Assembly (NCBI GenBank): GCA_022822085.1
Contig: JAJECK010000111.1
Span: 1-46,903 of the forward strand
From: Candidatus Poribacteria bacterium
GTDB lineage: Bacteria > Poribacteria > WGA-4E > WGA-3G
Direction: 5' to 3'
Length of the DNA stretch: 46,903 nucleotides
The notes under the pieces were generated by a model, which saw only the letters and a list, made by a program, of their open reading frames with translations, was not told the DNA's origin and searched no databases. Position numbers and translations under genes: made by a program. Below, piece by piece: positions 33,300 to 46,903 of the stretch (its first letter is position 1; each line of letters begins with the position of its first letter).

Positions 33300-33602
33300 C
33301 TACCGTTTTCCCAATTTTTTCTCCATCATGTGGCTGATGGCTTGAATTGCGGGTTGAGGGACTATAGGTTGGACTTCTCGAATAGCATCCCAATCAATCA
33401 CCGCTGTCCACAACTTTTCTTCTTCTGAGTAGTGAACGATGCCCTCAACCTCTAATTCTTCGCTATAGATGATAAGGGATTGTCCATCTTGCAGTTCAAT
33501 TCCCTGCCGTTCGATATCTGCTACCGTGCCAGCGCAATTCAACCGCACCCTGCCTTTTACGTCTGCGTTGTGGAAGTCTGCAAAAACTCTGAGTGTGTTC
33601 AT
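33300..33602 (-). CDS. Conserved 100-residue protein, copy 1 (orphan)
   Basis: A 100-residue soluble protein that starts MNTLRVFADFHNADVKGRVR and contains GTVADIERQGIELQDGQ and KLWTAVIDWDAI. It is about 95 percent identical to the gene at 36,847-37,149, differing at five positions. The family is familiar as a conserved hypothetical in cyanobacteria and Poribacteria and has no known function. Copy 2 is coupled to a 113-residue gene; this copy lacks that partner upstream, so it is probably the derived, orphan copy. Confidence 0.7.
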   Translation of the reverse strand: MNTLRVFADFHNADVKGRVRLNCAGTVADIERQGIELQDGQSLIIYSEELEVEGIVHYSEEEKLWTAVIDWDAIREVQPIVPQPAIQAISHMMEKKLGKR

Positions 33603-33720
33603 CTTCTCTCCAAATCGCTATTCCGTTACAAGGACACTGTTTGCAAAGAGGGCCTCCACCCGTGCTCCGTTGAGAAATGAAAAATCAGATCATCTGTTTT
33701 TAGGTGAACGTATCAACGAT

Positions 33721-33921
33721 CTATTTTATCAGTTCGCTTGAATGAACGGATAAATATTCCGCCACTTCAAGATTCATTCGTTCAATTTCGGAAAGAAAAC
33801 CACCCGCGGATAACTCATAATTCCGTGGGTTGGTTTCAACCTGCTGGAGCTTTTCGACCAGTTTTTGAAAACGATCGATGCGATTCAGCGTTGCTTTAAG
33901 TTCCCGATCATTTTGAATCAT
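33721..33921 (-). CDS. Small protein downstream of doc, candidate antitoxin or partner
   Basis: A 66-residue helical, charged protein beginning MIQNDRELKATLNRIDRFQ and ending EYLSVHSSELIK. A TTG at 33936 would add five residues, but the ATG at 33921 fits better with GAGATGG upstream. It begins 22 bases after the Doc-family stop. Similar short IxNDREL... proteins occur next to toxin-like genes in other bacteria. No DNA-binding motif is clear, and an antitoxin role is inferred from location only. Confidence 0.55.
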   Translation of the reverse strand: MIQNDRELKATLNRIDRFQKLVEKLQQVETNPRNYELSAGGFLSEIERMNLEVAEYLSVHSSELIK

Positions 33922-33943
33922 TGCAAACCATCTCAACTATGTT

Positions 33944-34315
33944 TCACAAAACCCATGACTGTATATGATCGGCGATGACCGCAATATCGGTTATTGATCT
34001 ATCCGCAATTTCATAACCTAACTTGATAACTGAATCATTGATGTCTGGACGCAAATCACAACCGTTCAAATCTAAAAATATGAGCGCGCAGGTTAGACCG
34101 ATCCGTTTATTTCCGTCCAGAAATATATGCCCTATAATAATATGACGGGCATATATAGCAGCTTTTTGGAATAGAGTCGGATAGAGCTCTTCATCACCAA
34201 ATTTTGCACTTACTACATCGACTAAATAGTCTAACTGCTCTTTATGCAAGAACTGATAGTTCCCCACCTGGGCCTCGGCAATGATTAGAATATCCTCAAT
34301 TGTCAAATATATCAT
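33944..34315 (-). CDS. Doc/Fic-family protein (death-on-curing type)
   Basis: A 123-residue Doc-type protein. The catalytic signature HIFLDGNKR lies at residues 63-71, matching HxFx(D/N)xNKR. P1 Doc phosphorylates EF-Tu and arrests translation; Fic relatives AMPylate. The ATG at 34315 forms an ATGA overlap with the stop of the TPR gene, so translation is coupled; a longer frame to 34336 is less likely. A classical Phd antitoxin upstream is missing; instead a TPR gene precedes and a 66-residue gene follows. Confidence 0.82.
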   Translation of the reverse strand: MIYLTIEDILIIAEAQVGNYQFLHKEQLDYLVDVVSAKFGDEELYPTLFQKAAIYARHIIIGHIFLDGNKRIGLTCALIFLDLNGCDLRPDINDSVIKLGYEIADRSITDIAVIADHIQSWVL

Positions 34316-35385
34316 ATATTGCCGAGGGTCTTCCATGCGCGATCGTAATCTTTCAGTATTTTATCTAAGGCAATGAGAGAGTCATATTTCATACTTCTGG
34401 CAATCGCGAGGTCTAATTTAGCCATCGCGCGCTTTTCAAGTCGTAACAAGGCTCCGCCACGATAATAATACGCCTCAGCATAATCGGGATTGAGTGCTAT
34501 CGCTTTGGAATAGTCAGCTATAGCAAGTTCTACTTGACTTTTTTTCGCATAAGCCAAACCCCGATTGTAATAGGCAATTGCATTATAGGGTTTAAATTCA
34601 ATTGCTCTATTATAGTCTTCAATGGCTTTGTCAACATCGTCTTTGTCCTTGTAAATCGTCCCCCGATTGTTATAGGCATCGGCATAATTTGGTTGCAGTT
34701 CTATCGCTTTTCTGAAGTCTATCAAGGCTTTGTCAAGCTCATTCTTTGCGCCGTAGGCAGCCCCTCTACGGTTATAGGCAGGGGCATAATCTGGGTTCAA
34801 CTTTATCGCTTTATTAAAGTCTTTAATGGCAAGGTTAAGTTCGCCTTTGTGGAAGTAAGCACCGCCGCGATTGTAATAGGTATCGGCATAATCGGGATTA
34901 AGCTCTATTGCTTTACTAGAATCTTCAATGGCACGGTCAATCTCACCTTTGTGGAAGTAAGCACCGCCGCGATTGTTATAGGCAGGGGCATAATCTGGGT
35001 TCAACGCTATTGCTTTATTGTAGTCTTCAATGGCAAGGTTAAGTTCACTTTTGCTGAAGTAAGCACCGCCGCGATTGTTATAGGCAAAGACATAATCTGG
35101 GTTAAGTTCTATTACTTTGGTATAATCTCTTATTGCCTTATCAAGCTCTTCTTTGATCAGATAAGTTAGACCTCGATTGTTATAGGCAAAGGCATAATCA
35201 GGTTTTAGTTTTATCGCTTTATTAAAGTAGGTAATAGCAAGATCATAATGTCCATTTTCGGCATGATTAACGCCTTGATTATTGTATGCCTCAACACTAT
35301 CCTGTTTGTGAGATAGTGTGTTATTAGCATAAATAAAATTGGTGTCGTAAGAGGCATTAACAAGTCCTTGATTTAGTCCTTGCAT
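34312..35385 (-). CDS. TPR protein coupled to the Doc-family gene
   Basis: A 357-residue protein built from about nine TPR units of the NNRGxAYxxKGExDxAIxD type, each 34 residues. There is no TIR or signal peptide. The ATG at 35385 has AGGAGAAAAAG before it; a longer frame to 35457 has no support. The C-terminal 40 residues (RAMAKLDLAIARSMKYDSL...) leave the repeat pattern. The stop overlaps the doc start by four bases. TPR arrays usually bind partner proteins, so it may hold or regulate the Doc-like protein; this is inference. Confidence 0.8.
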   Translation of the reverse strand: MQGLNQGLVNASYDTNFIYANNTLSHKQDSVEAYNNQGVNHAENGHYDLAITYFNKAIKLKPDYAFAYNNRGLTYLIKEELDKAIRDYTKVIELNPDYVFAYNNRGGAYFSKSELNLAIEDYNKAIALNPDYAPAYNNRGGAYFHKGEIDRAIEDSSKAIELNPDYADTYYNRGGAYFHKGELNLAIKDFNKAIKLNPDYAPAYNRRGAAYGAKNELDKALIDFRKAIELQPNYADAYNNRGTIYKDKDDVDKAIEDYNRAIEFKPYNAIAYYNRGLAYAKKSQVELAIADYSKAIALNPDYAEAYYYRGGALLRLEKRAMAKLDLAIARSMKYDSLIALDKILKDYDRAWKTLGNI

Positions 35386-35496
35386 AACTTTTTCTCCTGC
35401 ACAATTCGTATTCCTTGATGGTAATGATAACACAACCCATCCCCACATATCAACCAAAATTCCTATTTCCCTTTTAGCCTCCGCGCCTTCCGCGAT

Positions 35497-35655
35497 TCAG
35501 GCACTCCCCTCCACAATCGCAATTTCTTGATTTCGGAATCGCGAATTGAAAACTTGTAACATTAGGTAATCCGCTAAGGGGCGTGTTTTCTGTTTCACTG
35601 CTATGACTGTGGAGACGTTAGCAGTGCGGCGATGTCTGCTGGAAGGGTAACATTA
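35497..35655 (-). repeat. Island boundary module: cap P2 plus IVEG tail upstream of the TPR gene
   Basis: On the minus strand LPADIAALLTSPQS-stop (about 35,647-35,600) is followed by a degenerate GCGG stretch and NQEIAIVEGSA-stop (about 35,530-35,497), then CGCGGAAGGCGCGG toward the TPR gene. The tail matches the C-terminus of the restriction/methylase-like remnants at 40,312-40,440 and 46,529-46,600. Confidence 0.6.
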
Positions 35656-35734
35656 TGTTTTTATTCAAAGTGGCAATGCATTTATATAAGCGGTTGAGCA
35701 AATTCTTCGCTGTTGTTGAGCAATTTCTTTGCTG

Positions 35735-36325
35735 TTATGGTAGGTGACTTCCGCCGCCGGTTTGGGACCAAAAATCTTCGGCGGCCTGTTGATGGTTCTG
35801 GCATAGCCACTGATGAATCCGCCTAAGAATGCGTGGCAACCCTTTTTGCGGCAAGTTTTCTGATTCCCAGCTTGCCATCTGCCGCCGCAGCGAAACATCA
35901 ATCGGGTTTTCAACTGCAATATCTACTTGATGACAGGCTTGTATCAGTTTTCGGTCATCTGTTGCTAATACGTTAGCACCTCGTGTACGGGTCACCTGTA
36001 AAAGTATCGCATCAGTGATGTCAATTTTCAGTGCGTCTGCGATCTGCATCGAGGTAAGGGTTATCGGTAAGTCTACCTCAATAATTTCAATCGGACCAGC
36101 GGAAAATTGGGAAAGTTGTTGTGAGGCAAGGTTGACATCTACATCATAAACCTTTGTGAGAATTGCTTGTGCTTCCAGCAATGTAAGCGTTGTCGTGAAC
36201 CAATTGACGTGGTTTCGGATGAACGATTCGCACACGTCGGATGCGGGATGGTCGTCGAGCAAGGAATAGACGATCAGCATTGCGTCTAATCCGCGTCCGG
36301 CGAATTGTTCAGAAGATAAGGTCAT
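35735..36325 (-). CDS. PIN-domain protein, probable VapC-like toxin
   Basis: A 196-residue protein with the PIN fold pattern. Acidic residues, numbered from the alternative GTG at 36328, are Asp15 (RGLDAMLIVY), Glu52 (LLEAQAIL), Asp106 (ITDAILL) and Asp124/125 (LATDDRKL). These fit the metal-binding tetrad of PIN nucleases, which in VapC toxins cut tRNA or rRNA. Residues about 145-197 are an unusual Arg/Gln-rich extension. The start overlaps the upstream AbrB-like gene, as in type II TA pairs. A shadow frame at 35,665-35,919 overlaps its end and is not called. Confidence 0.78.
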   Translation of the reverse strand: MTLSSEQFAGRGLDAMLIVYSLLDDHPASDVCESFIRNHVNWFTTTLTLLEAQAILTKVYDVDVNLASQQLSQFSAGPIEIIEVDLPITLTSMQIADALKIDITDAILLQVTRTRGANVLATDDRKLIQACHQVDIAVENPIDVSLRRQMASWESENLPQKGLPRILRRIHQWLCQNHQQAAEDFWSQTGGGSHLP

Positions 36326-36536
36326 CACCGCTTACCTCAGACAGGTCTAATGCCGAAGGAGTCCCCATTTTCAGTTTCTCGGCATAAATATTGTCCCACG
36401 TCCGTGTAGTGGAGGGACGAATCAATATGCCATCCTCTGTTCTTTCGATCACGACACCTGATTCCAACCCCAATTCTTTCACCCAGTCTAGGGGCAATTT
36501 GATTTTATAGCCAGTTTCCAATACAAGCGTTTTCAT
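36309..36536 (-). CDS. AbrB/MazE-type antitoxin
   Basis: A 75-residue protein with the swapped-hairpin AbrB pattern: TLVLETGYKIKLPLDWVKELGL, EDGILIRP, then a toxin-binding tail ending EVSGDDLIF. The ATG at 36536 has AGAGGTGG upstream. The gene overlaps the PIN gene by about 17 bases, so they are probably a VapBC-like pair. Such antitoxins bind and repress their own promoter; the promoter at 36,569-36,597 would be the target. Confidence 0.8.
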   Translation of the reverse strand: MKTLVLETGYKIKLPLDWVKELGLESGVVIERTEDGILIRPSTTRTWDNIYAEKLKMGTPSALDLSEVSGDDLIF

Positions 36537-36568
36537 GATAACCACCTCTTCGTAAAACAGTTGAAAAG

Positions 36569-36597
36569 AGTATATCATAACTTGCGTTGATTATCAA
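36569..36597 (-). promoter_or_regulatory. Consensus promoter of the AbrB/PIN pair
   Basis: On the minus strand TTGATA (36597-36592) and TATACT (36574-36569) are 17 bases apart, with a TG extension. The 93-base region 36,553-36,645 is repeated exactly or nearly so at 40,016-40,108. Confidence 0.6.
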
Positions 36598-36655
36598 TTG
36601 TTTTTAGTGGGGAATGCTAATCGACAGTTTGTGCGCGAAGGACGCTGATTTTGTT

Positions 36656-36841
36656 ATCTGAATCGCGGAAGGCGCGGAGGACACGGAGGACGCGGATTGG
36701 TAATCTGTCACATCAGGTAATCCTATAAGGCGAGTGTTTTCTGTTTTGCTGCTATGGCTGTGGAGATGTTAGCAGTGCGGCGATGTCTTCGGGTAATTGG
36801 TTGAGAAACTTATCTCACAGGACTCATGTTCATTTCGGTAA
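36656..36841 (-). repeat. Island boundary module: GCGG repeat plus ALLTSPQP cap (copy P3)
   Basis: A second copy of the P1 block. The cap decodes on the minus strand as LPEDIAALLTSPQP-stop, but its upstream small frame is broken by a stop after MNMSPVR, unlike P1. It directly follows copy 2 of the 100-aa gene. Confidence 0.65.
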
Positions 36842-36846
36842 TGTAA

Positions 36847-37149
36847 CTACCGTTTGCTCAATTTTTTCTCCATCATGTGGCTGATGTCCTGAATTGCGGG
36901 TTGAGGGACTATAGGTTGGACTTCTCGAATGGCATTCCAATCAATCACCGCTGTCCACAACTTTTCTTTTTCTGAGTAGTGAACAACGCCTTCAACCTCC
37001 AACTCTTCGCTATAGATGATAAGGGATTGTCCATCTTGCAGTTCAATTCCCTGCCGTTCAATATCTGCTACCGTACCAGCGCAATTCAACCGCACCCTGC
37101 CTTTTACGTCTGCGTTGTGGAAGTCTGCGAAAACTCTGAGTGTGTTCAT
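36847..37149 (-). CDS. Conserved 100-residue protein, copy 2
   Basis: Nearly identical to the protein at 33,300-33,602, with five substitutions. Here the ATG overlaps the stop of the 113-residue gene by four bases (ATGA), so the two are translationally coupled. The pairing of two small conserved unknowns in a toxin-antitoxin-rich island suggests a two-component module, possibly TA-like; there is no motif proof. Confidence 0.7.
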   Translation of the reverse strand: MNTLRVFADFHNADVKGRVRLNCAGTVADIERQGIELQDGQSLIIYSEELEVEGVVHYSEKEKLWTAVIDWNAIREVQPIVPQPAIQDISHMMEKKLSKR

Positions 37150-37487
37150 CTTCTTTCTCTCCCAGGATTTGGAACTGTCGGTGTCAGCAGTCTACTAACT
37201 TGTTCGGGGGTCAGTCCTGTTAACGTTGCATGATGGGGACTCCGACCAGCAGTTCGGACCACATCACCACCTGCTTTTCGAACCTCCGCAACGGTTGTTA
37301 TACCAATTTGTCCATGTGGAATGGTTTGTGCCAATTCCTCAATAGGTACACCTTCGGCACTTTCTACCGACACACCAGTGACTCCAGCCGGATGTGTGCC
37401 AGTCCCTCGTTGAATGTCACTCGCTTGATTTTTACCGCCCCGAATAACAAGAGCATCGTCCGAAATTCTCAAGCCGCTGATTTCCAT
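37146..37487 (-). CDS. Conserved 113-residue protein coupled to the 100-aa gene
   Basis: A 113-residue Gly/Thr-rich protein. It begins MEISGLRISDDALVIRGGKN, contains RGTGTHPAGVTGVSVE and GQIGITTVAEVRKAGGDVV, and ends ATLTGLTPEQVSRLLTPTVP before a basic tail. Similar conserved hypotheticals are known to me from cyanobacteria; no function is established. A consensus promoter lies so close (37,500-37,528) that the leader would be only a few bases. Confidence 0.68.
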   Translation of the reverse strand: MEISGLRISDDALVIRGGKNQASDIQRGTGTHPAGVTGVSVESAEGVPIEELAQTIPHGQIGITTVAEVRKAGGDVVRTAGRSPHHATLTGLTPEQVSRLLTPTVPNPGRERR

Positions 37488-37499
37488 TCCCTATTATCC

Positions 37500-37528
37500 A
37501 TTCTATCGTATTGATTTAACACTGTCAA
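37500..37528 (-). promoter_or_regulatory. Consensus promoter of the 113-aa/100-aa pair
   Basis: On the minus strand TTGACA (37528-37523) and TAGAAT (37505-37500) are 17 bases apart. The predicted transcript starts about five to seven bases before the ATG at 37487, so it would be nearly leaderless. Confidence 0.5.
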
Positions 37529-37580
37529 GTGATAGTTGCGCGGCTTCTTTACAGATAATACGATATGGCACCAATTCAAA

Positions 37581-37650
37581 ATCCACTAAGAGAGCAGTTT
37601 TGTTTTGCTGCTATGGCTGCGGAGGCGTTAGCAGGGCGGCGATAAGAAAT
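37581..37650 (-). repeat. 3' cap remnant P4 (ALLTPPQP)
   Basis: On the minus strand this decodes as IAALLTPPQP-stop followed by the conserved AGCAAAACA stretch. It lies 42 bases beyond the 3' end of the 3-TM gene and is not in frame with it. Confidence 0.55.
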
Positions 37651-37691
37651 CTTGATATTGCTGAAAAGACGTATCTCGTATCGACTCCGTA

Positions 37692-38102
37692 TCAATTAGA
37701 AAAATAGACAATTGTACCCACAAAAAGTACCTCTATCAAATAAAAAATGATTAGCGTGACCGAAAAAATAGCGGATATCCAACTACTTTTGGGTTTGCCT
37801 TTATGTTTGCCGAGATCCATCTTGAAATCGGTGTCAGTTTGCTCTCTGATATCATCATAGACATATCGGAACAATCGTTCCTGCCAGAGAAAGTATCCAT
37901 CCAGAATCCAAAATCCCACGATGGGAAAGAAGAGTACCAAGACAAAATATGAATTTTGTAGGTTTTCTCTGGCGATTAAGACCATTGCTGCAACGAGGAT
38001 CGTCATGCTCCAACTTTTTAAGAGAAAACTGTTGCGTCCCAAGCGGTTAATAACGGCTTGCGTCATTTCCAGATGCTTTACAACTTTTTCGATGCCATTC
38101 AT
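37692..38102 (-). CDS. Small membrane protein with about three membrane segments
   Basis: A 136-residue protein that starts MNGIEKVVKHLEMTQAVINR, then FLLKSWSMTILVAAMVLIA, FVLVLFFPIVGFWILDGYF with WQERLFRYVYDDIR after it, and a last segment near residues 110-132. Related proteins with HLEMxQxVIxR...LKxWSxT occur widely and are often in accessory islands; function is unknown. AAGGAGG before the ATG at 38102 decides this start over the one at 38123. The promoter at 38,130-38,159 overlaps a boundary tail. Confidence 0.72.
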   Translation of the reverse strand: MNGIEKVVKHLEMTQAVINRLGRNSFLLKSWSMTILVAAMVLIARENLQNSYFVLVLFFPIVGFWILDGYFLWQERLFRYVYDDIREQTDTDFKMDLGKHKGKPKSSWISAIFSVTLIIFYLIEVLFVGTIVYFSN

Positions 38103-38129
38103 GGATTTGCCCTCCTTTATCATATTAGC

Positions 38130-38159
38130 AGTATATCATAAGGTGAAATGGATTTTCAA
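38130..38159 (-). promoter_or_regulatory. Promoter of the 3-TM gene, formed in a boundary tail
   Basis: On the minus strand TTGAAA (38159-38154) and TATACT (38135-38130) are 18 bases apart with a TGA extension. The -35 is the same CTTGAAAAT string that encodes LEN in the tail remnants elsewhere. Confidence 0.5.
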
Positions 38160-38371
38160 GTGTAAGCCTTTACATTGGTTTGTATTTTGGTGTGAGGGTT
38201 GTCCTGTCCGTTAGGGGTTCTTTGTTGTCTGAATCGCGGAAAGCGCGGAGGACGCGGATAAGACCGCAGCCACTAATCGTCTTGCTTAGAAACACTTATC
38301 CTAATCAATAGATTCCTCATGTTCAACTCTTATCCGCGAAATCTGCGTCATCTGTGTCCTCCGAGATTCAG
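38160..38371 (-). repeat. Boundary tail remnant and GCGG inverted pair
   Basis: Bases 38,160-38,215 match the first part of the restriction/methylase-like remnant at 40,380-40,440 (ACGGACAGGACAACCCTCAC region). GCGG arms at 38,229-38,262 and 38,329-38,371 are imperfect inverted copies around a 66-base centre. No gene is seen. Confidence 0.6.
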
Positions 38372-38386
38372 TCACATGCTACAGTA

Positions 38387-38506
38387 TATCTCATAAATCA
38401 TAATAGGACACCTTCATTGTAGGGGCGAGGTTACCTCGTCCCTATATAAAAAGGGTTGTTCTAAACGGGCGGGGAGACCCCGCCCCTACAAGTGATTTAT
38501 GAGATA
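38387..38506. mobile_element. MITE-like element of a second family (120 bp)
   Basis: Perfect 14-bp terminal inverted repeats TATCTCATAAATCA (38387-38400) and its complement (38493-38506) flank an interior with GTAGGGGCGAGG and CGGGGAGACCCCGCCCCTAC, which themselves pair. No target duplication is clear. There is no coding frame. Confidence 0.65.
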
Positions 38507-38522
38507 CGCTCTAATAAACACG

Positions 38523-38642
38523 GTTTTTGGGAGGCCACAGATTGTGGCATTTGACGCGGAAAAAGGGCATACGAATTTTGGACTTGATATAGATATTTGC
38601 AATCTGACTGAGAAGAAGATTTTGGAACACACTAATATGTGA
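38523..38642 (+). pseudogene. Possible gene remnant, 39 codons
   Basis: A plus-strand frame with coding-like composition reads VFGRPQIVAFDAEKG and ends KKILEHTNM-stop. It has no start codon near and abuts the MITE-like element at 38,387-38,506. I do not recognise the family. It may be the 3' end of a gene lost on insertion, or chance. Confidence 0.25.
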
Positions 38643-38701
38643 AAACAATAGTAACAATATATTTTAATATCAAAGAACTCTAAAACTGAGATGATTTGAT
38701 G

Positions 38702-39919
38702 TTATTCGGTGTCTTCTTGCAGAGATTTTGCTGCAAAAATTGTCAGGCATAATTCTTCATTGTGAAGTTCATAAATAGGTGTTTGTCCACTCAGTTGCTC
38801 GCTTTCGTTAAGGATGATACCGACACCTTCGCCACGTCGTTCAAAAAAGTGTCTCCGCTTCACTTGGTTTCCTACATCATCATCTAAATTAATTTCCGAA
38901 AGTAAACGAGCTAAGAGTTCATTACGGGTGGCTTGACTATAAGGCAATTTCTCAATTGTTACCGTATTTGCTAATGCCCCTGGCGAATAGAGTTCAAGTC
39001 GATCCGCAAACATGAACAGACGTATTTTTGACACGCCTTTTGAATAATCACGATGTACAACTGCATTAACGATTGCCTCAAAAACGGCGCGCAAACTGTA
39101 TTGGGGTCGGTCTATCCTGCCAATTTCCTTACGCGCTGATACCTTGTTGTGTTTTTGAACAAACTTAAAGGCATCTATAATCTGTTGATCAAGCGGTCCT
39201 CTAAAATCTACTGCATCAATTTGGTAGTTGGCATCTTTTTGTTTACCGCTATAATAAACAGCCTGAATAAAACTGTTATAGAGGAATTCGTCAGGTGTAT
39301 CGTGACACATCAAAACGCCAGCAACAGAAGCACGAATATCACGACCTTCTTTAACAAGTAAAGTTCTTTTCAAGAGTAGGTCTTCTATCATTTCTTCAGA
39401 GGCATCTTGGGTGATGAATCGTCGATATAGCGATTCCCTTAATGTTCTTCTATGTGTGGTTGGAACGAATAGTGTGTCAAAATGAGTTATGCGCGGCTGT
39501 GAACGGGCATGAATCAGTCGTGCTAACTGTACTGTGGACATCTCTCTTTTAGTCTTTTCTTGACGCGTAAAATACCCGTTAACAGTCTTGTGAACAAAAA
39601 AACTACTGGGGATCTTTATTCTCAATAGGTTTTTACCATCAAGTCGAAACTTCTCTGTGAAGATGTGAACGGTGGGTTCAATGCTCTCACTGCATATTTC
39701 AACAACAGTTTTTTCTATCTGATCCAATTTCTGTAGTTCAATTCCAACGATTTCCCTGTTGTCGTCAATACCGATAAGTATCGTCCCTCCTTCGGCGTTC
39801 GCAAATGCAGCGATCTCATCTGCCATGCTGTCTCTGTGTGGCATCTCTCTTCTGAATTCCATCGTCGAGTCTTCACTAAGTATGATGTCTTCAATAAGTT
39901 CGGTTTGACTGTGTAACAT
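38702..39919 (-). CDS. AlbA_2 (Schlafen-like) and HATPase domain putative regulator
   Basis: A 405-residue protein. Residues about 15-120 are the AlbA_2 DNA-binding domain: STMEFRREMPHRDSMADEIAAFANAEGGTILIGIDDN. A middle region (about 150-245) links to a GHKL-type ATP-binding region (about 255-390) with SLRAVFEAIVNAVVHRDYS and LELYSPG. This layout is the common RecG-like or putative transcriptional-regulator annotation; the DNA target is unknown. The ATG at 39919 lies two bases from the stop of a DUF433 remnant, whose promoter it probably uses. Confidence 0.83.
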   Translation of the reverse strand: MLHSQTELIEDIILSEDSTMEFRREMPHRDSMADEIAAFANAEGGTILIGIDDNREIVGIELQKLDQIEKTVVEICSESIEPTVHIFTEKFRLDGKNLLRIKIPSSFFVHKTVNGYFTRQEKTKREMSTVQLARLIHARSQPRITHFDTLFVPTTHRRTLRESLYRRFITQDASEEMIEDLLLKRTLLVKEGRDIRASVAGVLMCHDTPDEFLYNSFIQAVYYSGKQKDANYQIDAVDFRGPLDQQIIDAFKFVQKHNKVSARKEIGRIDRPQYSLRAVFEAIVNAVVHRDYSKGVSKIRLFMFADRLELYSPGALANTVTIEKLPYSQATRNELLARLLSEINLDDDVGNQVKRRHFFERRGEGVGIILNESEQLSGQTPIYELHNEELCLTIFAAKSLQEDTE

Positions 39920-39921
39920 AA

Positions 39922-40008
39922 CTAATTTCCACCTGTGATTTTTCCTTGCCCGCTGCGTTTACCTGGTTCAATGGTAATAATATCTCTATAGTCGTTTATG
40001 GTACCCAC
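39922..40008 (-). pseudogene. DUF433-family antitoxin remnant
   Basis: From a GTG at 40008 the frame reads MGTINDYRDIITIEPGKRSG then QGKITGGN-stop, 28 codons. DYRDIITIEPGKRSGKPCIRG is the usual N-terminus of DUF433 antitoxins of about 75 residues, so this is a truncated start. The upstream 93 bases are a copy of the AbrB/PIN promoter region. Truncation has put the AlbA gene under that promoter. Confidence 0.6.
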
Positions 40009-40015
40009 CTCTTGC

Positions 40016-40108
40016 TAAAACAGTTGAAAAGAGTATATCATAACTTGCGTTGATTATCAATTGTTTTTAGTGGGGAATGCTAATCGACAGTTTGTGCGCG
40101 AAGGACGC
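40016..40108 (-). repeat. Copy of the AbrB/PIN promoter region
   Basis: This 93-base stretch appears identical to 36,553-36,645, including TTGATA (40,060-40,055) and TATACT (40,037-40,032). It is a duplicated promoter now reading into the DUF433 remnant and the AlbA gene. Confidence 0.75.
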
Positions 40109-40124
40109 GGATTATGCCTCTTTT

Positions 40125-40317
40125 GTCTGAATCGCGGATTGACGCGGATGACACAGATTAACGCGGATTATGTTTTCGCATATCCTAAATCTGCTTCCAA
40201 AAAACAGCGTTAATTGCATGATCCACAACATCGGCACTGGATAGGCCCGGGACTTGAAAATGAAAACTCAATAATCCGCGTTAATCCGTGTCATCCGCGT
40301 CAATCCGCGATTCAGAC
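40125..40317. repeat. 46-bp near-perfect inverted GCGG repeat
   Basis: The left arm (40125-40170) and right arm (40272-40317) match at 45 of 46 positions when inverted and enclose 101 bases. Each arm is a run of GCGGAT units about 10-14 bases apart. A third, more diverged copy lies at 43,206-43,251. It could form a cruciform. Confidence 0.8.
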
Positions 40318-40440
40318 ACTCCCCTCCACAATCGCAATCTCATCTTCCGTAAAATCGGACAATTCGCACACCAGTTTATCAATCTCATTTTCAAGAGAAA
40401 ACCTTTACATTGGTCTGTATTTTGGTGTGAGGGTTGTCCT
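40312..40440 (-). pseudogene. C-terminal remnant of a restriction/methylase-like gene (tail d)
   Basis: The minus strand decodes RTTLTPKYRPM, a stop, RFSLENEIDKLVCELS, DFTEDEIAIVEG and SV-stop. ENEIDxLVYELYxLTEEEIxIVE is the usual C-terminus of Eco57I-type restriction/N6-adenine methylase proteins. The stop after RPM shows decay. Its stop codon comes from the flanking GCGG repeat. Confidence 0.6.
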
Positions 40441-40454
40441 GTCCGTTCAGGGTT

Positions 40455-40547
40455 ATTGTTGTCTGAATCGCGGAGGACACAGAGGACGCGGATTGGTAAT
40501 CTGTCACATCAGGTAATCCGCTAAGGCGAGCGTTTTCTGTTTTGCTG
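40455..40547 (-). repeat. Conserved 3' region and GCGG repeat after TIR-TPR protein 1
   Basis: The stretch after the TIR-TPR stop (CAGAAAACGCTCGCC, CATCAGGTAATCC in plus sense, then TCTGAATCGCGGAGG) is shared with 33,108-33,200, 36,656-36,740 and 44,560-44,636. It links the 3' cap to the restriction/methylase-like tail d. Confidence 0.7.
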
Positions 40548-43175
40548 CTATGGCTGTGAAGGTGTTAGCAGTGCGACGATGTCTTCTGGTAATTGAATGC
40601 CTGATATCCGCTCAAAGTTTTCAACACTTATAAATCCGCTACGAAAAACTAAGGCGATATCTGCTCCCATGTTTTTGGCAGTTGTCAGGTCAGATCTGGC
40701 ACTTTCCCATTTCTGCAAACACAATAGTATGATACCACGATTGCTGTAAACTTCCGCATAATCTTGCTTGAGTTGTATTGCTTGGGTATAATCCGAGATG
40801 GCAAAATCAAACTTACCTTTTTTTACGTAAGTCGCCCCACGATTATTATATGCTTCGGCATAATCTTGTTTGAGTTGTATTGCTTGGGTATAGTCTCGGA
40901 CAACTTGGTCAAAATTGCCTTGTTCCTGGTATGCATTACCGCGATTGTAATATGCTTCGGCATAACCAGGATTAAGTTGTATTGCTTGGGTATAATCTTG
41001 AATAGCCTGATCGAAATCACTTATTCTCTGGTAAGCGTTCCCACGATTATTATATGTTTCGGCATAATCTGGCTTGAGTTGTATTGCTTGGGTATAGTCT
41101 CGGACAGCCTGGTCAAAATCGCCTTGTTCCTGGTAGGTGTTTCCGCGATTGTAGTAGGCTTCTGCATAATCTTGCTTGAGTTGTATTGCTTGAGTATAAT
41201 CTTGAATAGCCTGATCGAAATCGCTTTGTTGCTGGTAAGCGTTACCACGATTGTTATAGGCTTCAGCATCATCGGATTGAAATTTTATAACGGCGTTGTA
41301 GTCGTTGATGGCACTATCAAAATCACCTTTTGTTTCATAAGCATTGCCACGATTGAAATAGGCTTCGGCAAAATCGGATTTCAATTTTATCGACTCGGTA
41401 TAGTCTGTTATGGCACTATCAACATCGCCCTTGTCAACATAAGTCCTGGCCCGATTGAAATAGGCTTCGGCAAAATCAGGTTGTAGTTCTATCGTTTTAG
41501 TATAACTTGGAATGGCATTGTTAAAATTACTTTCTTTCCTATAAATATTGCCGAGATTGTAATAAGCTGAAGCATGATTTGGATCCAGTTGGATCACTTT
41601 TGTATAGTCTTCAATGGCACGCGCTAAGTCGCCTTTTCTACCGTAAACCTTGCCACGGTTATAGTATGCACTAATATCCTGAGGATTGATTTCTATTGCC
41701 AGCGTATAGTCTTTGATGGCATTATCCACCTCACCTTTCTTGTTGTAAGTATCAGCGCGATTGTAATAGGCACTAGCATAATTAGGATTGATTTCTATTG
41801 CCCGTGTATAATCTTTAATAGCTTTATCTAACTCGCCTTTTTCATAGTAAGTATTACCGCGTCCATTATATGCTTCGGCATAACCGAGATTTAGTTCTAT
41901 AGCTCTATTATAGTCTTTGATCGCGCAGGCGAATTCATTTTTGTTGAAATAAGCATTACCACGATTGTGATAGGCTTCGGCAAAATCGAATTTGAGGGCA
42001 ACCGCCTTGTTATAGTCTTCAATCGCTTTGTCAAAATCACCCTTGTCGGTGTAGGCAACACCGCGATTATTATATGCCTCGGCATAATCGGGTTTGAAGT
42101 TAACTGCCTTATTATGGTCTTTGATGGCAAGGTCATACTTACCTTTGTTGGCATATACATTACCACGATTGCTGTATGCTTCGGCATAATCGGGTTTGAG
42201 CTTTATTGCAATGGTAAAGTCTTCAATAGCACGATAGCACTCGCCTTTATTATCGTAAGCAGTTCCACGATTGCTGTATGCTTCGGCAAAATCGGGTTTG
42301 AGTTTTATTGCGGTGTTATAGTCTTTGATGGCAAGGTCATACTCGCCTTTGTCGTCGTATACGAAACCGCGATTGTTATACGCCCCGGCAAAATTAGGTT
42401 TGAGTTTTATAGCAATGTTATAGTCTTTGATTGCAAGTTCGTTCTCACCTTTGGCGTTGTAGGCATTTCCTCTATTGGAATATGCTACGGCATCATCGGA
42501 ATTGAGATATATCACCTCATTATAGTCCGCTATGGCAAGTTCGTACTCACCTTTAGCATGGTACGCGAGACCCCGGTTGTTATATACCTCGGCTAAGTAG
42601 GGGTTGAGATTAACGAGAAGAGAATAGGCTTCTATTGCCATGTTGATTTGATTTAACATTAGCAGAAAGTTTCCCTGTTGGAATACCCACTTAATTAGTT
42701 GTTCATTCTGGGCACTATCAGATGATAGGTTTGCTTGAGCTTGCATTTCATTAATCGCTTTTCGAATACCATTCACCACATTTTGCCAACCTTCACTCTC
42801 ATCCTCCCATTTGCTAATCGGTTTCCCTTTGTACGGAAGAACTTCAGAACCCCTGATTTGATGTTGTAACCAATCACAATGCTCAAGTATAATTGGGATA
42901 ACCCTTATTTCTTGTTTTAATGCTTCTGCTAATTCCCTGTTACAGTTTTTAGAAGCAAGGCTCGCAGCGGAAACAAGATAGAGTAACAGGTCCGAATCAG
43001 TAACCTTTTCGAGAATGTCTTCCTGAAGTGCTCCATCTCCAGGTGTAAGTTGACCGTCGTCCCATGTAATTAGCTCGTTATTCTGCTCCATCACGGCAAG
43101 ACGTTTTCGTAGTTCATTCTTCGCCTCTGTATTTTCGTGTGAATAGGTAATGAATCCCTTTAACGTTTTGCTCAT
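40548..43175 (-). CDS. TIR-TPR protein 1 (19 TPR repeats)
   Basis: An 875-residue protein. Residues 1-about 140 are a TIR domain (KGFITYSHENTEAKNEL, LLLYLVSAASLASKNCNREL); Glu81 occupies the catalytic-glutamate position of NAD-cleaving TIRs. About 19 TPR units follow (about 170-820). Units 14-18 are nearly identical (FDQAIQDYTQAIQL), indicating recent amplification. The end FERISGIQLPEDIVALLTPSQP is the shared cap. TIR-TPR proteins may act in phage defence, with TPRs sensing a partner, but this is inference. The ATG overlaps the stop of an IVE tail, and GTGGAGAAAA in that tail is the ribosome binding site. Confidence 0.88.
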   Translation of the reverse strand: MSKTLKGFITYSHENTEAKNELRKRLAVMEQNNELITWDDGQLTPGDGALQEDILEKVTDSDLLLYLVSAASLASKNCNRELAEALKQEIRVIPIILEHCDWLQHQIRGSEVLPYKGKPISKWEDESEGWQNVVNGIRKAINEMQAQANLSSDSAQNEQLIKWVFQQGNFLLMLNQINMAIEAYSLLVNLNPYLAEVYNNRGLAYHAKGEYELAIADYNEVIYLNSDDAVAYSNRGNAYNAKGENELAIKDYNIAIKLKPNFAGAYNNRGFVYDDKGEYDLAIKDYNTAIKLKPDFAEAYSNRGTAYDNKGECYRAIEDFTIAIKLKPDYAEAYSNRGNVYANKGKYDLAIKDHNKAVNFKPDYAEAYNNRGVAYTDKGDFDKAIEDYNKAVALKFDFAEAYHNRGNAYFNKNEFACAIKDYNRAIELNLGYAEAYNGRGNTYYEKGELDKAIKDYTRAIEINPNYASAYYNRADTYNKKGEVDNAIKDYTLAIEINPQDISAYYNRGKVYGRKGDLARAIEDYTKVIQLDPNHASAYYNLGNIYRKESNFNNAIPSYTKTIELQPDFAEAYFNRARTYVDKGDVDSAITDYTESIKLKSDFAEAYFNRGNAYETKGDFDSAINDYNAVIKFQSDDAEAYNNRGNAYQQQSDFDQAIQDYTQAIQLKQDYAEAYYNRGNTYQEQGDFDQAVRDYTQAIQLKPDYAETYNNRGNAYQRISDFDQAIQDYTQAIQLNPGYAEAYYNRGNAYQEQGNFDQVVRDYTQAIQLKQDYAEAYNNRGATYVKKGKFDFAISDYTQAIQLKQDYAEVYSNRGIILLCLQKWESARSDLTTAKNMGADIALVFRSGFISVENFERISGIQLPEDIVALLTPSQP

Positions 43176-43206
43176 TGGATTTTCTCCACAGTCCCAATTT
43201 CTTTTG
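43172..43206 (-). pseudogene. IVE tail remnant overlapping the TIR-TPR 1 start (tail c)
   Basis: The minus strand reads TKEIGTVEKIQ-stop, the last residues of a restriction/methylase-like C-terminus. Its TGA overlaps the ATG of the TIR gene as ATGA. Upstream it is joined at once to a GCGG repeat (43,206-43,251), so all but the last ten or so codons are gone. Confidence 0.5.
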
Positions 43207-43283
43207 TCTGAATCGCGGATTTACGCGGATGACACAGATTTACTCGGATTATTGACTTTGAAGTGTTTCATGCTTCACTCCAA

Positions 43284-43323
43284 TTCTACATTCTATGGTT
43301 AATTTCTACATTCTATGGTTAAT
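43284..43323. repeat. 20-bp perfect tandem duplication
   Basis: TTCTACATTCTATGGTTAAT occurs twice head to tail (43284-43303 and 43304-43323) between the DUF932-like gene and the GCGG repeat. Confidence 0.9.
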
Positions 43324-43348
43324 AGAATAAACTGGATTAAGATATTGA

Positions 43349-44407
43349 TTACAAAAAACGAAGACTTTCATCCGCAGCAACCAATTTCTCCATTAGATTT
43401 GTAATATCTACCCATTTTAGTCGCTTGGGAATTGTGCCTTCCTGACTTGCAATCCAACTCAGGATTTGACTGAGATCAAATGCATTTCTTGCTGGGGCAA
43501 AATGTTCGGGGGCTGGATCTTTCTTCTGCACATAATATCGCGGTTTAGAGGAATATGGTGTAAGTTCTGATGGTTGTGGAATCTGTTTTCTACTCTCTGT
43601 TTCTTGGTCTTTATCATCAGATTCTAATGTCTTAACTTGAATATCATATCCCACCATAGCGATATGATATGCCCTTGCTGCCTTTTCATACTTCCATTTG
43701 TTCTTAACATCATTATCAATCCAACGTGCTAATGTTCGCTGACTGACCTTAGCAGCTTTCCAACGTTTGTAAAATTCGCGCTCACCTGAAAGTTTTGAAA
43801 GATGAAATACTAAGAAGGAATGAATTTCATTTGCAATTATGTTTGAGTCTAATTCCTTTTCCTTTTTGCGTTTTATCTTTTTGAACTTTACCTCCTGTGA
43901 AGATAACATACCGTAAGGTATTCGGGTTCCGTATTCCGGTTCATACCAGTTTAGGCGGACATCTAAGGCTTTACCCGGTTTAACTGTATTTAATCCACTA
44001 ACTTCAAGGTGAAAAGGATATTTTTCTGCTTTATTAAGCTCATGGTTGTCTAATGAAAAACTCACCCACATATTTTGACCGTATTCTGTAATATGCAAAG
44101 TGGCTTCAAGAGATTTTATGTCAGAAGCTACTAACTGCACTGCCTGCACTAATGCCTTAAATACGTCTCGGTGTTGGACAAGTCGGTATTGTTTTGAAGC
44201 GATACATACCGGTATATCCTGACGCTCATTGATTAATTCTCCATCCGTACTCAGAGATTGACGTATGATCATTTCAAGGTATTCATTGGTACCCCCATTA
44301 TGAAGTTTAAATGGCACTCTATTGAAATGCGGAATCCAATCTAATAACTCGTCAACTGTTTTTTTGTATACAAATGTTTCTCTACCTTCCCACTTTAGTT
44401 TCAACAT
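43349..44407 (-). CDS. DUF932-like protein between two TIR-TPR genes
   Basis: A 352-residue protein without signal or membrane segments. It contains YRLVQHRDVFKALVQAV, LHITEYGQNMWVSF, PFHLEVSGLNTVKPGKALD and GTRIPYGML, a pattern like the phage/plasmid-associated DUF932 family. Residues about 180-250 are Lys-rich and helical (KKIKRKKEKEL). The C-terminal 60 residues may be a separate helical domain. DUF932 function is unknown. The ATG at 44407 has AGGAGAG upstream, and an IVEG tail remnant lies just before. Placement between two TIR-TPR genes suggests a shared accessory role. Confidence 0.6.
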   Translation of the reverse strand: MLKLKWEGRETFVYKKTVDELLDWIPHFNRVPFKLHNGGTNEYLEMIIRQSLSTDGELINERQDIPVCIASKQYRLVQHRDVFKALVQAVQLVASDIKSLEATLHITEYGQNMWVSFSLDNHELNKAEKYPFHLEVSGLNTVKPGKALDVRLNWYEPEYGTRIPYGMLSSQEVKFKKIKRKKEKELDSNIIANEIHSFLVFHLSKLSGEREFYKRWKAAKVSQRTLARWIDNDVKNKWKYEKAARAYHIAMVGYDIQVKTLESDDKDQETESRKQIPQPSELTPYSSKPRYYVQKKDPAPEHFAPARNAFDLSQILSWIASQEGTIPKRLKWVDITNLMEKLVAADESLRFL

Positions 44408-44418
44408 ATATCACTCTC

Positions 44419-44545
44419 CTATAACTGTCCCTCTACAATGGCAATTCCTTTATTGTTAAATTATACAATTCAGACACCAATTTATCCACTTCATTTTCAA
44501 GTGTAATCCTTTCCATTGGTCTGTGTTTTGGTGTGAGGGTTGTCC
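44419..44545 (-). pseudogene. C-terminal remnant of a restriction/methylase-like gene (tail b)
   Basis: The minus strand reads DRTTLTPKHRPMERITLENE, then VDKLVSELYNLTIKE, then shifts frame to GIAIVEG. One indel therefore breaks it. It has the same residues as tail d but keeps MER where tail d has a stop. It directly precedes the DUF932-like gene. Confidence 0.6.
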
Positions 44546-44559
44546 TGTCCGTTCGGGGT

Positions 44560-44636
44560 TCTTTGTTGTCTGAATCGCGGAAAGCGCGGAGGACACAGAG
44601 GACGCGGATTGGTAACCTGTAACATCAGGTAATCCG
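44560..44636 (-). repeat. GCGG repeat and conserved 3' region after TIR-TPR protein 2
   Basis: Matches 40,455-40,547. It joins the cap of TIR-TPR 2 to tail b. Confidence 0.7.
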
Positions 44637-46532
44637 CTAAGGCGAGTGTTTTCTGTTTTGCTGATATGGCTGTGGAGACGTTAGCAGTGCGGCGATGTCT
44701 ACTGGTAATTGAATATTAGTTTTCTCCTCAAATTCTGCAATGCTTGCGTACTCGTTGTGGAATGAAGCGATGATATCCAGTCCCATGTTTTTGGCAGTGG
44801 TAAGGTCTGATTTGGCTTCTCGCCATTCACTAAGATGCAGCCACGCTTCCGCGCGATTGCAGTAGGTCAAAGCAAGTTGAGGATCCAGTTCTATTGCCTT
44901 ATTATAATCTTGAATGGCACGGTCATAATCACCTTTTTGAAAGTAAGCATAACCCCGGTTGCTATATGCCAAAGCAAGTTGAGGATCCAGTTCTATTGCC
45001 TTATTATAATCTTGAATGGCACGGTCATAATCACCTTTGTCGTGGCAAATCGCACCGCGATTGGAATATGCCTCAAAATCCTCAGGACTAATTGCAAACG
45101 CCTTGTTATAGTCTTGAAGCGCACGATCAGGATCATCTTTGTCAAAATATGCGTTACCGCGGTTAGTATATGCTTCAAAATTCTTAGGATTCAGTTCAAT
45201 AGCCTTGTTATAGTCTTGAATGGCACGGTCAAATTCATCTTTCTGGTAGTGAGTAAGTCCGCGGTTGTTATATGCCGAAGCAAGTTGAGGATTCAGTTCA
45301 ATCGCTTTGTCATAGTCCTGAATGGCACGGTCAAATTCACCTCTATCGTCGTAAATAACACCTCGGTTGTTATAGGCTAATGCCTGATCTGGATTGAGGT
45401 CTATCGCCTTGTTATAGTCTTGAATGGCACGATCAGGATCACCTTTGTCGTAGTAAATCAAACCGCGATTAGAATATGCCAGAGCAAGCTGAGGATTGAT
45501 GTTTATTGCCTTGTTATAGTCTTGAAGTGCACGATCAGGATCACCTTTGTTGTAGTAAAATAAACCGCGATTGTTATAGGCTAATGCCTGCTGAGGATTG
45601 ATGTTTATCGCCTTGTTATAGTCTTGAATGGCACGATTAGGTTCACCTTTGTCGTAGTAAATTAAACCGCGATTGGAATATGCCAGATCAAGCTGAGGAT
45701 TGATGTTTATCGCCTTGTTATAGTCTTGAATGGCACGATCAGGATCACCTTTGTCGTAGTAAAATAAACCGCGATTGCTATAGGCTAATGCATGCTCAGG
45801 ATTAATGTCTATCGCAGCGTCAAAGTCTTGAATGGCAAGGTCAAGTTCCCGTTTTATATAGTAAAGAACACCCCGGTTGTTATAACAATTAGCAAAATCG
45901 GGTTTGTGTTTAACTGCTCGTGTATAATCTTCTAATGCCTCATCTATCTGCCGGTGCATCATCTTAAAGTTACCATGATTGAATGCATTATCTGCCAGCA
46001 CTTTCAATTCTTCAGGTGTTATTTGAGGAGTAGTTTCTTCTTCACTTTCCAACTCGTCAGGTGACAGTTCAGTCGTAGGTTGTGGCTGTGACAGCATTGC
46101 GTTGACAACTCGTCGTAAACCAGTTACCACGTTGTTCCATGCTTCGTCTTCTGAATTCCAGTCGTCGGTACCGTAGATTGGTTTACCTTCATCTGGCAAT
46201 GCTTGAAAATCACTAAGTTGATGATTTCCCCAATCGCAAGGCTTCAGGATAATCGGAATCACCTTTATTTCTGGATCAAACGCTGCTATCAATTCCTTAT
46301 TGCAGTTTTTAGAATTAAGACTGTCAGGACAAGTAAGATATAGCAGAATATTTGAATCAGCGAGGTTTTTAAAAATAGCATCACGCCATTTGTCTCCAGG
46401 TAAGATTTCATTATCGTGCCAGATTTTTACAAGTCCTTCTTGAATCAGGACAGTAAGGTGAGTGATCAATCTATCCTTGGCATCTGAACTCTTATGTGCG
46501 TAGGTTATAAAAACCTTTACTGGTTTATTCAT
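44637..46532 (-). CDS. TIR-TPR protein 2 (about 12 TPR repeats)
   Basis: A 631-residue protein. The TIR domain (1-about 140) reads VKVFITYAHKSSDAKDR and LLYLTCPDSLNSKNCNKE, with Glu80 at the catalytic position. About 12 TPR units (170-570) have the pattern AYSNRGLIYYDKGDPDRAIQ. The end is NIQLPVDIAALLTSPQP followed by ten extra residues (YQQNRKHSP). The TIR domain is clearly a paralog of protein 1, but the TPRs are a different expansion. The ATG overlaps the stop of tail a; that tail's GTGGAGGG supplies the ribosome binding site. Confidence 0.87.
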   Translation of the reverse strand: MNKPVKVFITYAHKSSDAKDRLITHLTVLIQEGLVKIWHDNEILPGDKWRDAIFKNLADSNILLYLTCPDSLNSKNCNKELIAAFDPEIKVIPIILKPCDWGNHQLSDFQALPDEGKPIYGTDDWNSEDEAWNNVVTGLRRVVNAMLSQPQPTTELSPDELESEEETTPQITPEELKVLADNAFNHGNFKMMHRQIDEALEDYTRAVKHKPDFANCYNNRGVLYYIKRELDLAIQDFDAAIDINPEHALAYSNRGLFYYDKGDPDRAIQDYNKAININPQLDLAYSNRGLIYYDKGEPNRAIQDYNKAININPQQALAYNNRGLFYYNKGDPDRALQDYNKAININPQLALAYSNRGLIYYDKGDPDRAIQDYNKAIDLNPDQALAYNNRGVIYDDRGEFDRAIQDYDKAIELNPQLASAYNNRGLTHYQKDEFDRAIQDYNKAIELNPKNFEAYTNRGNAYFDKDDPDRALQDYNKAFAISPEDFEAYSNRGAICHDKGDYDRAIQDYNKAIELDPQLALAYSNRGYAYFQKGDYDRAIQDYNKAIELDPQLALTYCNRAEAWLHLSEWREAKSDLTTAKNMGLDIIASFHNEYASIAEFEEKTNIQLPVDIAALLTSPQPYQQNRKHSP

Positions 46533-46600
46533 ACTTTTCCCTCCACAATAGTTATTTCTTCATCAGTGAAGTTGTATAATGTTTAGATCAGTTTCAAGTT
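46529..46600 (-). pseudogene. IVEG tail remnant overlapping the TIR-TPR 2 start (tail a)
   Basis: The minus strand reads NLKLI, a stop, TLYNFTDEEITIVEGKV-stop. Its TGA overlaps the TIR-TPR ATG as ATGA. The in-frame stop shows the upstream gene is dead, but the coupling junction survives. Confidence 0.6.
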
Positions 46601-46634
46601 AATATTCATGATTTGGTTTTTGCTGTGGTTCGGT

Positions 46635-46661
46635 TGTATAGTATGTCTAGTGTACTATACA
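46635..46661. repeat. 9-bp inverted repeat beside the transposase end
   Basis: TGTATAGTA (46635-46643) and TACTATACA (46653-46661) are exact inverted copies around a 9-base centre. The position just beyond the transposase 3' end would fit an insertion-sequence end, but no target duplication can be checked. Confidence 0.5.
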
Positions 46662-46722
46662 CCTATCGCTTCTCTGGAGCTCAAGAGCCGCATGCTTACA
46701 TGCAAGCACAACTTATACCAAA

Positions 46723-46903
46723 TTAATGTGATTCGTATTGTTTTTCCATTTTGCAAATCCACTGAAAACCGACATGTGCCTGCACTTTCTTTCTGTTTTT
46801 AGAGAACCATTGACACCTTTTCTCAACCGCATCTTCAAGTGCACAAAGTGTTGTCCAAACTTTATTCGCTATGGCCTCTCGCAACAGAGGCCATAGGCGT
46901 TCG
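46723..46903 (-). mobile_element. 3' end of an IS630-family-like transposase (runs off window)
   Basis: On the minus strand an open frame enters at 46903 and stops at 46723 (59 codons). It reads ERLWPLLREAIANKVW and then LEDAVEKRCQWFSKNRKKV, ending KMEKQYESH. ERLWxLLREA is the C-terminal signature of IS630/Tc1-like DDE transposases (the NPIERLW box region). The 5' part lies outside the window. The hairpin at 46,870-46,895 lies within this coding sequence. Confidence 0.7.

What the first reader, a model, noticed from the sequence alone, without database searches (positions are those of the whole stretch)
43172..46600. Both TIR-TPR genes start inside the stop codon of a dead restriction/methylase-like tail
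TIR-TPR 1 (ATG 43175) and TIR-TPR 2 (ATG 46532) each have an ATGA overlap with a tail reading ...VEKIQ-stop or ...VEGKV-stop. The GTG GAG codons for VE double as the ribosome binding site. This suggests an ancestral restriction-modification gene translated into a TIR-TPR gene as one coupled unit, a combination that would make a linked defence locus. Only the junction survives here.
Basis: partly seen in the sequence, partly recalled or inferred. Interest (0 to 1): 0.72.

Follow-up and report, generated by a model that had tools for sequence, protein, structure and literature searches.

The report
Restriction gene overlapping a TIR-TPR gene
In Poribacteria (sponge symbionts) some DNA-modifying restriction genes run straight into an immune-type TIR-TPR gene, the end of the first supplying the ribosome-binding site of the second; in this genome one of the two reported junctions is a broken leftover of such a pair, and the other is only a look-alike.

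Summary
The reported ATGA junctions are present on the minus strand, but the two differ in kind. TIR-TPR 2 (46532-44637) is preceded by a decayed C-terminus of a type IIG Eco57I-type methylase (46529-46648; ..YNFTDEEITIVEGKV*, with an in-frame TAA). TIR-TPR 1 (43175-40548) is not: its 'VEKIQ*' is the TIR-TPR family's own Shine-Dalgarno leader. All 43 TIR-TPR starts scored without a methylase junction also begin [A/G/T]TGA, and they resemble the methylase end only over the 15-nt ribosome-binding block, not over the 21 nt upstream.

The predicted intact unit exists. Five full-length IIG genes (1164-1266 aa) in four relatives end inside the start of a TIR-TPR gene: four by exactly 4 bases, one by 8. 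Trees show that the pairing formed or broke several times, with different methylase groups.

The methylase 3' end by itself matches the TIR-TPR leader (GARATTGCGATTGTGGAGG), so recombination at this shared block could explain the fusions. PADLOC models and the papers searched showed no described IIG + TIR-TPR unit.

Best reading: a new variant of an RM defence locus in which a TIR effector gene overlaps a IIG gene; in the window only a broken junction survives, at TIR-TPR 2. Coupled translation and joint defence are inferred.

The parts
44637..46532 (-). TIR-TPR 2, 631 aa: N-terminal TIR (TIR_2, ThsB-like) and a TPR array; start ATGA overlaps the stop of the methylase-tail frame
   Evidence: ORF; Pfam TIR_2 2.6e-13 and TPR_1 1.3e-116; PADLOC ThsB 4.1e-25
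46529..46648 (-). Decayed C-terminal tail of a type IIG (Eco57I-type) methylase, ..TLYNFTDEEITIVEGKV*, with an in-frame TAA before TLYNF
   Evidence: tblastn E 8.9e-4 in own genome; upstream-block shuffle p 0.0006; frames
46541..46546 (-). GTGGAG: codons V-E of the tail, doubling as Shine-Dalgarno of TIR-TPR 2
   Evidence: sequence
40548..43175 (-). TIR-TPR 1, 875 aa
   Evidence: ORF; Pfam TIR_2 1.3e-11 and TPR_1 5e-182
43172..43202 (-). Family-type leader of TIR-TPR 1 (AAGAAATTGGGACTGTGGAGAAAATCCAATGA), not a methylase tail; preceded by the end of a dispersed repeat (..CCGCGATTCAGAC)
   Evidence: upstream-block p 0.88; nearest relatives L180 and L167 have the same leader type and no methylase junction
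43349..44407 (-). 352-aa gene P0002, DUF932-related family; its homologue follows a long methylase frame 12 nt after the stop in G008 (L228)
44419..44555 (-). Frameshifted methylase tail in front of P0002 (ERITLENEVDKLVSELYNLT / IAIVEGQL*)
   Evidence: E 1.4e-18 (query made from this copy)
40315..40446 (-). Methylase tail copy with an in-frame TAA; its stop lies in dispersed repeat GTCTGAATCGCGGATT; no coupled gene follows
   Evidence: E 2.9e-16
38152..38211 (-). 5' part of a tail copy, cut off after LEN
   Evidence: E 1.1e-5
35497..35540 (-). Last codons only of a tail copy (QEIAIVEGSA*)
   Evidence: exact ATTGCGATTGTGGAGGG
46645..46903 (-). End of a multi-copy element at the contig end, probably an insertion sequence; what lies upstream of the TIR-TPR 2 tail beyond it is unknown
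   Evidence: five places in the genome, mostly at contig ends

Best explanation
In Poribacteria a type IIG restriction-methylase gene and a TIR-TPR gene are repeatedly joined end to start. The last methylase codons (E-I-A-I-V-E-G, spelled GARATTGCGATTGTGGAGG) are also the ribosome-binding site of the TIR-TPR gene, and the methylase stop TGA lies inside its [A/G]TGA start. The joint probably forms because the methylase 3' end and the normal TIR-TPR leader share this ~15-nt block; deletion or recombination at it removes the spacer (shown: the shared block, fused and unfused versions, several changes on the trees; inferred: the recombination step). The product is a two-gene operon of a IIG enzyme and a predicted NAD-acting TIR effector, whose synthesis would be tied together so that restriction and a suicide-type response are made as one set (inferred). 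In the window, TIR-TPR 2 comes from such a pair whose methylase frame is broken; TIR-TPR 1 does not.
For: Intact fused pairs: L128, L130, L133, L143 and L156, with Eco57I domains in all, TaqI_C above cut-off in four and best PADLOC match type IIG. Five of 38 frames of at least 800 aa with this tail are fused; with about 80 TIR-TPR genes in 57 genomes, chance would give almost none. Truncated, contig-cut or remnant versions: L126, L165, L110/L155, L119, L121, L108, L113, L114. Seam homology: a matrix made only from uncoupled leaders has its best or second-best hit at the 3' end in eight of nine methylase genes (rank 4 in the ninth). Uncoupled leaders match the tail in the 15-nt block (p 6e-19 against 224 other ORF starts) but not in the preceding 21 nt (p 0.13). 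L129 (205-bp spacer) and L128 (fused) carry near-identical TIR domains and the direct repeat GTGGAGGG at both edges. One-clade origin rejected; partners from distant methylase groups.
Against: No expression or function data. Overlap need not mean coupling: in PvuII the C and R genes overlap but initiate independently (PMC2997769). Most IIG genes of the family (33 of 38 frames) are not fused and most TIR-TPR genes have no methylase next to them. A DUF932-related gene also follows the same methylase end in one genome, so the partner is not always TIR-TPR. Direction of change (fusion or separation) is not settled by unrooted trees. Leaders and tails are each families of related sequences, so p values overstate independence.
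Confidence: 0.7

Rival explanations
1. The fusion is a neutral by-product of recombination in a repeat-rich defence island. The TIR-TPR gene brings its own ribosome-binding site and is expressed independently; the overlap has no function.
For: The TIR-TPR leader keeps the same ribosome-binding block with or without a methylase; the segment [TIR-TPR 3' end + spacer + tail] is duplicated several times in the window; another gene type also follows the same methylase end; overlapping RM genes can be translated independently (PMC2997769).
Against: The exact 4-base overlap is found in four intact pairs with long open methylase frames, in two TIR-TPR clades and different methylase groups.
Confidence: 0.3
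2. One reading: both window genes descend from one ancestral methylase-TIR-TPR unit, and VEKIQ before TIR-TPR 1 is a methylase remnant.
For: In the methylase frame the TIR-TPR 1 leader reads KEIGTVEKIQ*, close to the ends VEKSQ*/VEKNQ* of L133 and L121; 28 of 39 scorable uncoupled leaders keep GTGGAG in that phase.
Against: No resemblance upstream of the ribosome-binding block (p 0.88, p 0.13 for all uncoupled leaders); TGA overlap in all 43 uncoupled starts; the TIR-TPR 1 clade holds 20 rows and no coupled member; the frame upstream of uncoupled starts is no longer open than the others (medians 21, 21 and 15 codons).
Confidence: 0.08
3. The tail in front of TIR-TPR 2 is kept after loss of the methylase because it still works as a translated leader or regulatory element.
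For: Remnant-only tails precede TIR-TPR genes in several genomes (window, L108, L119, L121, L110/L155), some with 15-20 further open codons.
Against: The window copy has an in-frame stop and L108 is frameshifted; remnants differ in length; tail copies also stand where no gene follows (40315-40446, 35497-35540).
Confidence: 0.07

Closest known systems
Type IIG restriction enzyme-methyltransferases (Eco57I-type)
   Same: Upstream partner: Eco57I methylase domain, TaqI-like C-terminal specificity domain in most, about 1200 aa; best PADLOC models are REase_MTase_IIG; C-terminus matches BseCI methylase (PDB 7qw5)
   Different: Known IIG systems are usually described as stand-alone genes (own knowledge); here the 3' end overlaps a TIR effector gene. 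The nuclease domain was not identified.
Thoeris (ThsB TIR protein)
   Same: The TIR domain matches PADLOC ThsB (E 4e-25 and 1e-24); the catalytic-type glutamate (E80 in A1) is invariant in 13 coupled proteins
   Different: TIR is fused to a TPR array; no ThsA search was made; the partner here is a IIG enzyme
TIR proteins with solved structure (Cat1, CRISPR-associated TIR; and a TPR protein, 9m0n)
   Same: TIR profile A1 matches Cat1 9mud (E 3.4e-6) and, weakly, 9m0n, an 824-aa 'tetratricopeptide repeat protein' (E 0.008)
   Different: Cat1 is CRISPR-associated by name; 9m0n could not be tied to a paper in the library
BREX (PglX) and DISARM (DrmMI) methylases
   Same: Large Eco57I-related methylases of multi-gene defence loci
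   Different: Scores 39-92 bits against BREX-1 PglX, cut-off 500; IIG models score far higher than PglX or DrmMI
PvuII-type C/R gene overlaps in RM systems
   Same: Overlap of stop and start between two RM-linked genes
   Different: There the overlap is between controller and endonuclease, and coupling was tested and not found (PMC2997769)

Membership tests
Type IIG restriction enzyme-methyltransferase (upstream partner) | Eco57I/N6-adenine methylase domain | tested here: met
   Pfam Eco57I E 1e-28 to 1e-38 in six proteins
Type IIG restriction enzyme-methyltransferase (upstream partner) | C-terminal specificity (TaqI_C) domain in the same chain | tested here: met
   TaqI_C above cut-off in L130, L143, L156 and L128; just below cut-off in L133; absent in L113, the type with another C-terminus
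Type IIG restriction enzyme-methyltransferase (upstream partner) | Nuclease domain in the same chain | tested here: inconclusive
   N-terminal ~350 aa conserved among seven proteins, but no nuclease family was matched
TIR effector (NAD-acting) | TIR domain | tested here: met
   Pfam TIR_2 over cut-off in both window proteins
TIR effector (NAD-acting) | Conserved catalytic glutamate | tested here: met
   E80 invariant in 13 coupled proteins; in line with WDEL of Cat1
TIR effector (NAD-acting) | NAD cleavage or signalling activity | not testable with these tools
   needs an assay
Thoeris | ThsA partner gene | not tested
   no ThsA search was run
BREX | PglX methylase above curated cut-off | tested here: not met
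   NF033452 39-92 bits against cut-off 500
Linked IIG + TIR-TPR unit (this report) | intact methylase gene overlapping the TIR-TPR start | tested here: met
   five intact pairs in relatives; in the window itself only a broken tail at TIR-TPR 2
Linked IIG + TIR-TPR unit (this report) | co-translation | not testable with these tools
   inferred from overlap only

The most novel reading that the evidence does not exclude
The IIG 3' end is a reusable docking end: its last codons are a ready-made ribosome-binding site, so that different effector genes (TIR-TPR, a DUF932-related gene, perhaps others) are repeatedly captured onto the restriction gene and come under its translation, giving a swappable 'restriction plus backup effector' unit in Poribacteria.
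Probability: 0.3. Interest if true: 0.7.

Novelty: new variant of a known kind. Interest (0 to 1): 0.5.

Why it matters
It gives a concrete, testable case of a restriction enzyme gene and a TIR effector gene built into one overlapping unit, with intact, fused, spaced and broken versions in related genomes. It also shows how a protein's C-terminal codons can double as the start signal of a neighbouring immune gene, and it warns that an ATGA start plus a GTGGAG motif is the default for this gene family and is not evidence of a fused neighbour.

Tried and rejected
DNA search with the TIR-TPR 2 upstream 81 bases found no second significant copy in the genome. The idea that the tails are attachment-site repeats of an integrating element was considered because intact and partial copies stand in direct order (L106, L107), but no integrase was looked for and segmental duplication explains the window copies. 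The idea that uncoupled leaders are old, decayed methylase tails was disfavoured by the upstream-block test. A conserved upstream reading frame in uncoupled genes was rejected: open lengths do not favour that frame. Fold search with the P0002 model (mean pLDDT 77) gave no significant match. Literature searches for TIR-TPR with restriction or IIG returned nothing relevant. The first TIR tree had mis-set rows and was replaced. The chance rate for fused pairs was estimated from gene density, not simulated.

Full report
Check of the observation. Both genes lie on the minus strand. TIR-TPR 1 is 43175-40548 (875 aa) and TIR-TPR 2 is 46532-44637 (631 aa); both are TIR plus TPR array. Both starts read ATGA, and in the +1 frame the upstream sequence reads ..KEIGTVEKIQ* and ..TLYNFTDEEITIVEGKV*. 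So the letters are as described.

Are they methylase tails? A query made from the window's best tail finds, in the whole 5.6-Mb genome, window copies and one intact gene end: C25:122911-122997, the C-terminus of a 1255-aa open frame (two further hits have E above 0.1), which reads ..LEDEIDKLVYALYDLTEDEIAIVEGGV*. An Eco57I domain lies in the same frame. The tail family is therefore the C-terminus of an Eco57I-type methylase. In the window there are recognisable copies at 46529-46648, 44419-44555, 40315-40446, 38152-38211 and 35497-35540, all without a methylase body. Parts of the segment [3' end of TIR-TPR, spacer with dispersed repeat, tail] are repeated several times between 33.1 and 44.7 kb.

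Where the two junctions differ. I took TIR-TPR starts from relatives and scored 43 that carry no methylase junction (TIR-TPR 1 among them). All 43 have a stop codon starting at the second base of the start codon, mostly because residue 2 is Ser or Asn. Most carry GTGGAG or a close variant 14-17 nt upstream, with a leader consensus ..AAgaAATTgnnATTGTGGAGAAAA. Scored against a matrix from uncoupled methylase ends, these leaders match the last 15 nt (ATTGCGATTGTGGAG) far better than 224 other ORF starts (p 6e-19), but the preceding 21 nt do not match (p 0.13). For the window genes themselves, the preceding block gives shuffle p 0.88 for TIR-TPR 1, 0.0006 for TIR-TPR 2 and below 0.0002 for P0002. 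TIR-TPR 1 thus has the family leader, while TIR-TPR 2 and the DUF932-related gene P0002 have real methylase tails. The tree agrees: TIR-TPR 1 sits in a 20-row clade with no coupled member (99/93), and TIR-TPR 2 in an 11-row clade with seven coupled members.

Intact units. In 41 of 59 genomes of the family the tail query has a match. Full-length methylase frames end inside the start of a TIR-TPR gene in L128 (G056), L130 and L156 (G038), L133 (G041) and L143 (G044), with overlaps of 8, 4, 4, 4 and 4 bases. L126 is the same but cut by the contig end; L165 has a 198-aa truncated frame. In L113 and L114 a methylase with a different C-terminus is followed by a short tail and then the TIR-TPR gene. 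In L110/L155, L119, L121 and L108 only the tail remains next to the TIR-TPR start. Of 38 frames of at least 800 aa with this tail, five are fused to TIR-TPR; at least three more have a TIR-TPR start about 190-240 bp downstream. With about 80 TIR-TPR genes in 57 genomes of about 5 Mb this is far above chance; I estimated this from density and did not simulate it. The organisms are Candidatus Poribacteria; one unfused relative of the TIR domain is in a Latescibacterota bin and starts ATGG, without the stop overlap.

What the upstream gene is. Pfam gives Eco57I in all six proteins tested and TaqI_C above cut-off in four; PADLOC's best models are type IIG; BREX PglX is far under its cut-off. The N-terminal third is conserved but no nuclease family was recognised, so complete restriction activity is not shown.

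How the joint may form. In unfused genes the methylase stop usually lies in a dispersed repeat, GTCTGAATCGCGGATT (22 places in this genome with up to one mismatch, against 0 for the reversed pattern). A matrix made from uncoupled TIR-TPR leaders, slid along nine methylase genes, hits the 3' end as best or second best in eight, six to nine bases before the end of the gene. L129 and L128 are a natural pair: near-identical TIR domains, 205 bp of spacer with inverted repeats in L129, none in L128, and GTGGAGGG at both edges. Loss of the spacer between these short direct repeats would give the fused form. The direction is an inference.

One origin or several. Coupled TIR-TPR genes cluster (7 changes, shuffled mean 12.8, 0 of 500 as low) but do not form one clade (AU p 1e-7). 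Coupled methylases are scattered over distant groups (quick tree, some long branches). L143 pairs a TIR of one clade with a methylase of the group otherwise paired with the other clade.

Mechanism, with status. Shown: the overlap, the shared block, the intact pairs, the repeated change. Inferred: that the methylase's last codons serve as the ribosome-binding site of the TIR-TPR gene, that the two are co-expressed, and that a IIG enzyme and a TIR effector act together in defence. The caution is real: PvuII's overlapping C and R genes are translated independently (PMC2997769).

Limits. Beyond 46645 the contig runs into a multi-copy element also found at the ends of other contigs, including C25, so what stood upstream of the TIR-TPR 2 tail is unknown; the tail frame itself carries a stop, so a methylase ending there would be broken. 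Tails, leaders and genes within a family are related, so p values treat them as more independent than they are. The literature search covers open-licence papers only.

Noticed in passing
window 43349-44407 (-) and L228: P0002 (352 aa) belongs to a DUF932-related family (7 of 13 homologues match); its homologue in G008 starts 12 nt after the stop of a long methylase frame, so TIR-TPR is not the only gene found behind this methylase end.
   Followed up: partly
window 33101-44720 (-): Segment [TIR-TPR 3' end + spacer + methylase tail], whole or in part, repeated at 44408-44720, 40322-40598, 38152-38253, 37580-37643, 36650-36799, 35540-35642 and 33101-33250, suggesting a decayed tandem array of TIR-TPR units.
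   Followed up: partly
window 40125, 40303, 43206, 33108, 38227, 40461, 44568: Dispersed repeat GTCTGAATCGCGGAT (both orientations, often as inverted pairs around spacers): 22 places in the genome with up to 1 mismatch, 0 for the reversed pattern; in many relatives it contains the methylase stop codon.
   Followed up: partly
window 46645-46903; G000:C25:124244-124384: Multi-copy element at the window's right contig end, also at the end of contig C25, which carries the genome's intact tail-bearing methylase frame; the two contigs could be neighbours but the repeat makes this ambiguous.
   Followed up: partly
L113, L114, L111: Methylases with another C-terminus (..SRAKSSK*, ..TRARSKK*) are followed at once by a short tail of the other type, which looks like a scar of a swapped specificity end.
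   Followed up: no
window 35386 (-): A TPR-only gene has the same leader type (TTATCATTACCATCAAGGAATACGAATTGTGCAGGAGAAAAAGTTATG) as uncoupled TIR-TPR genes.
   Followed up: no
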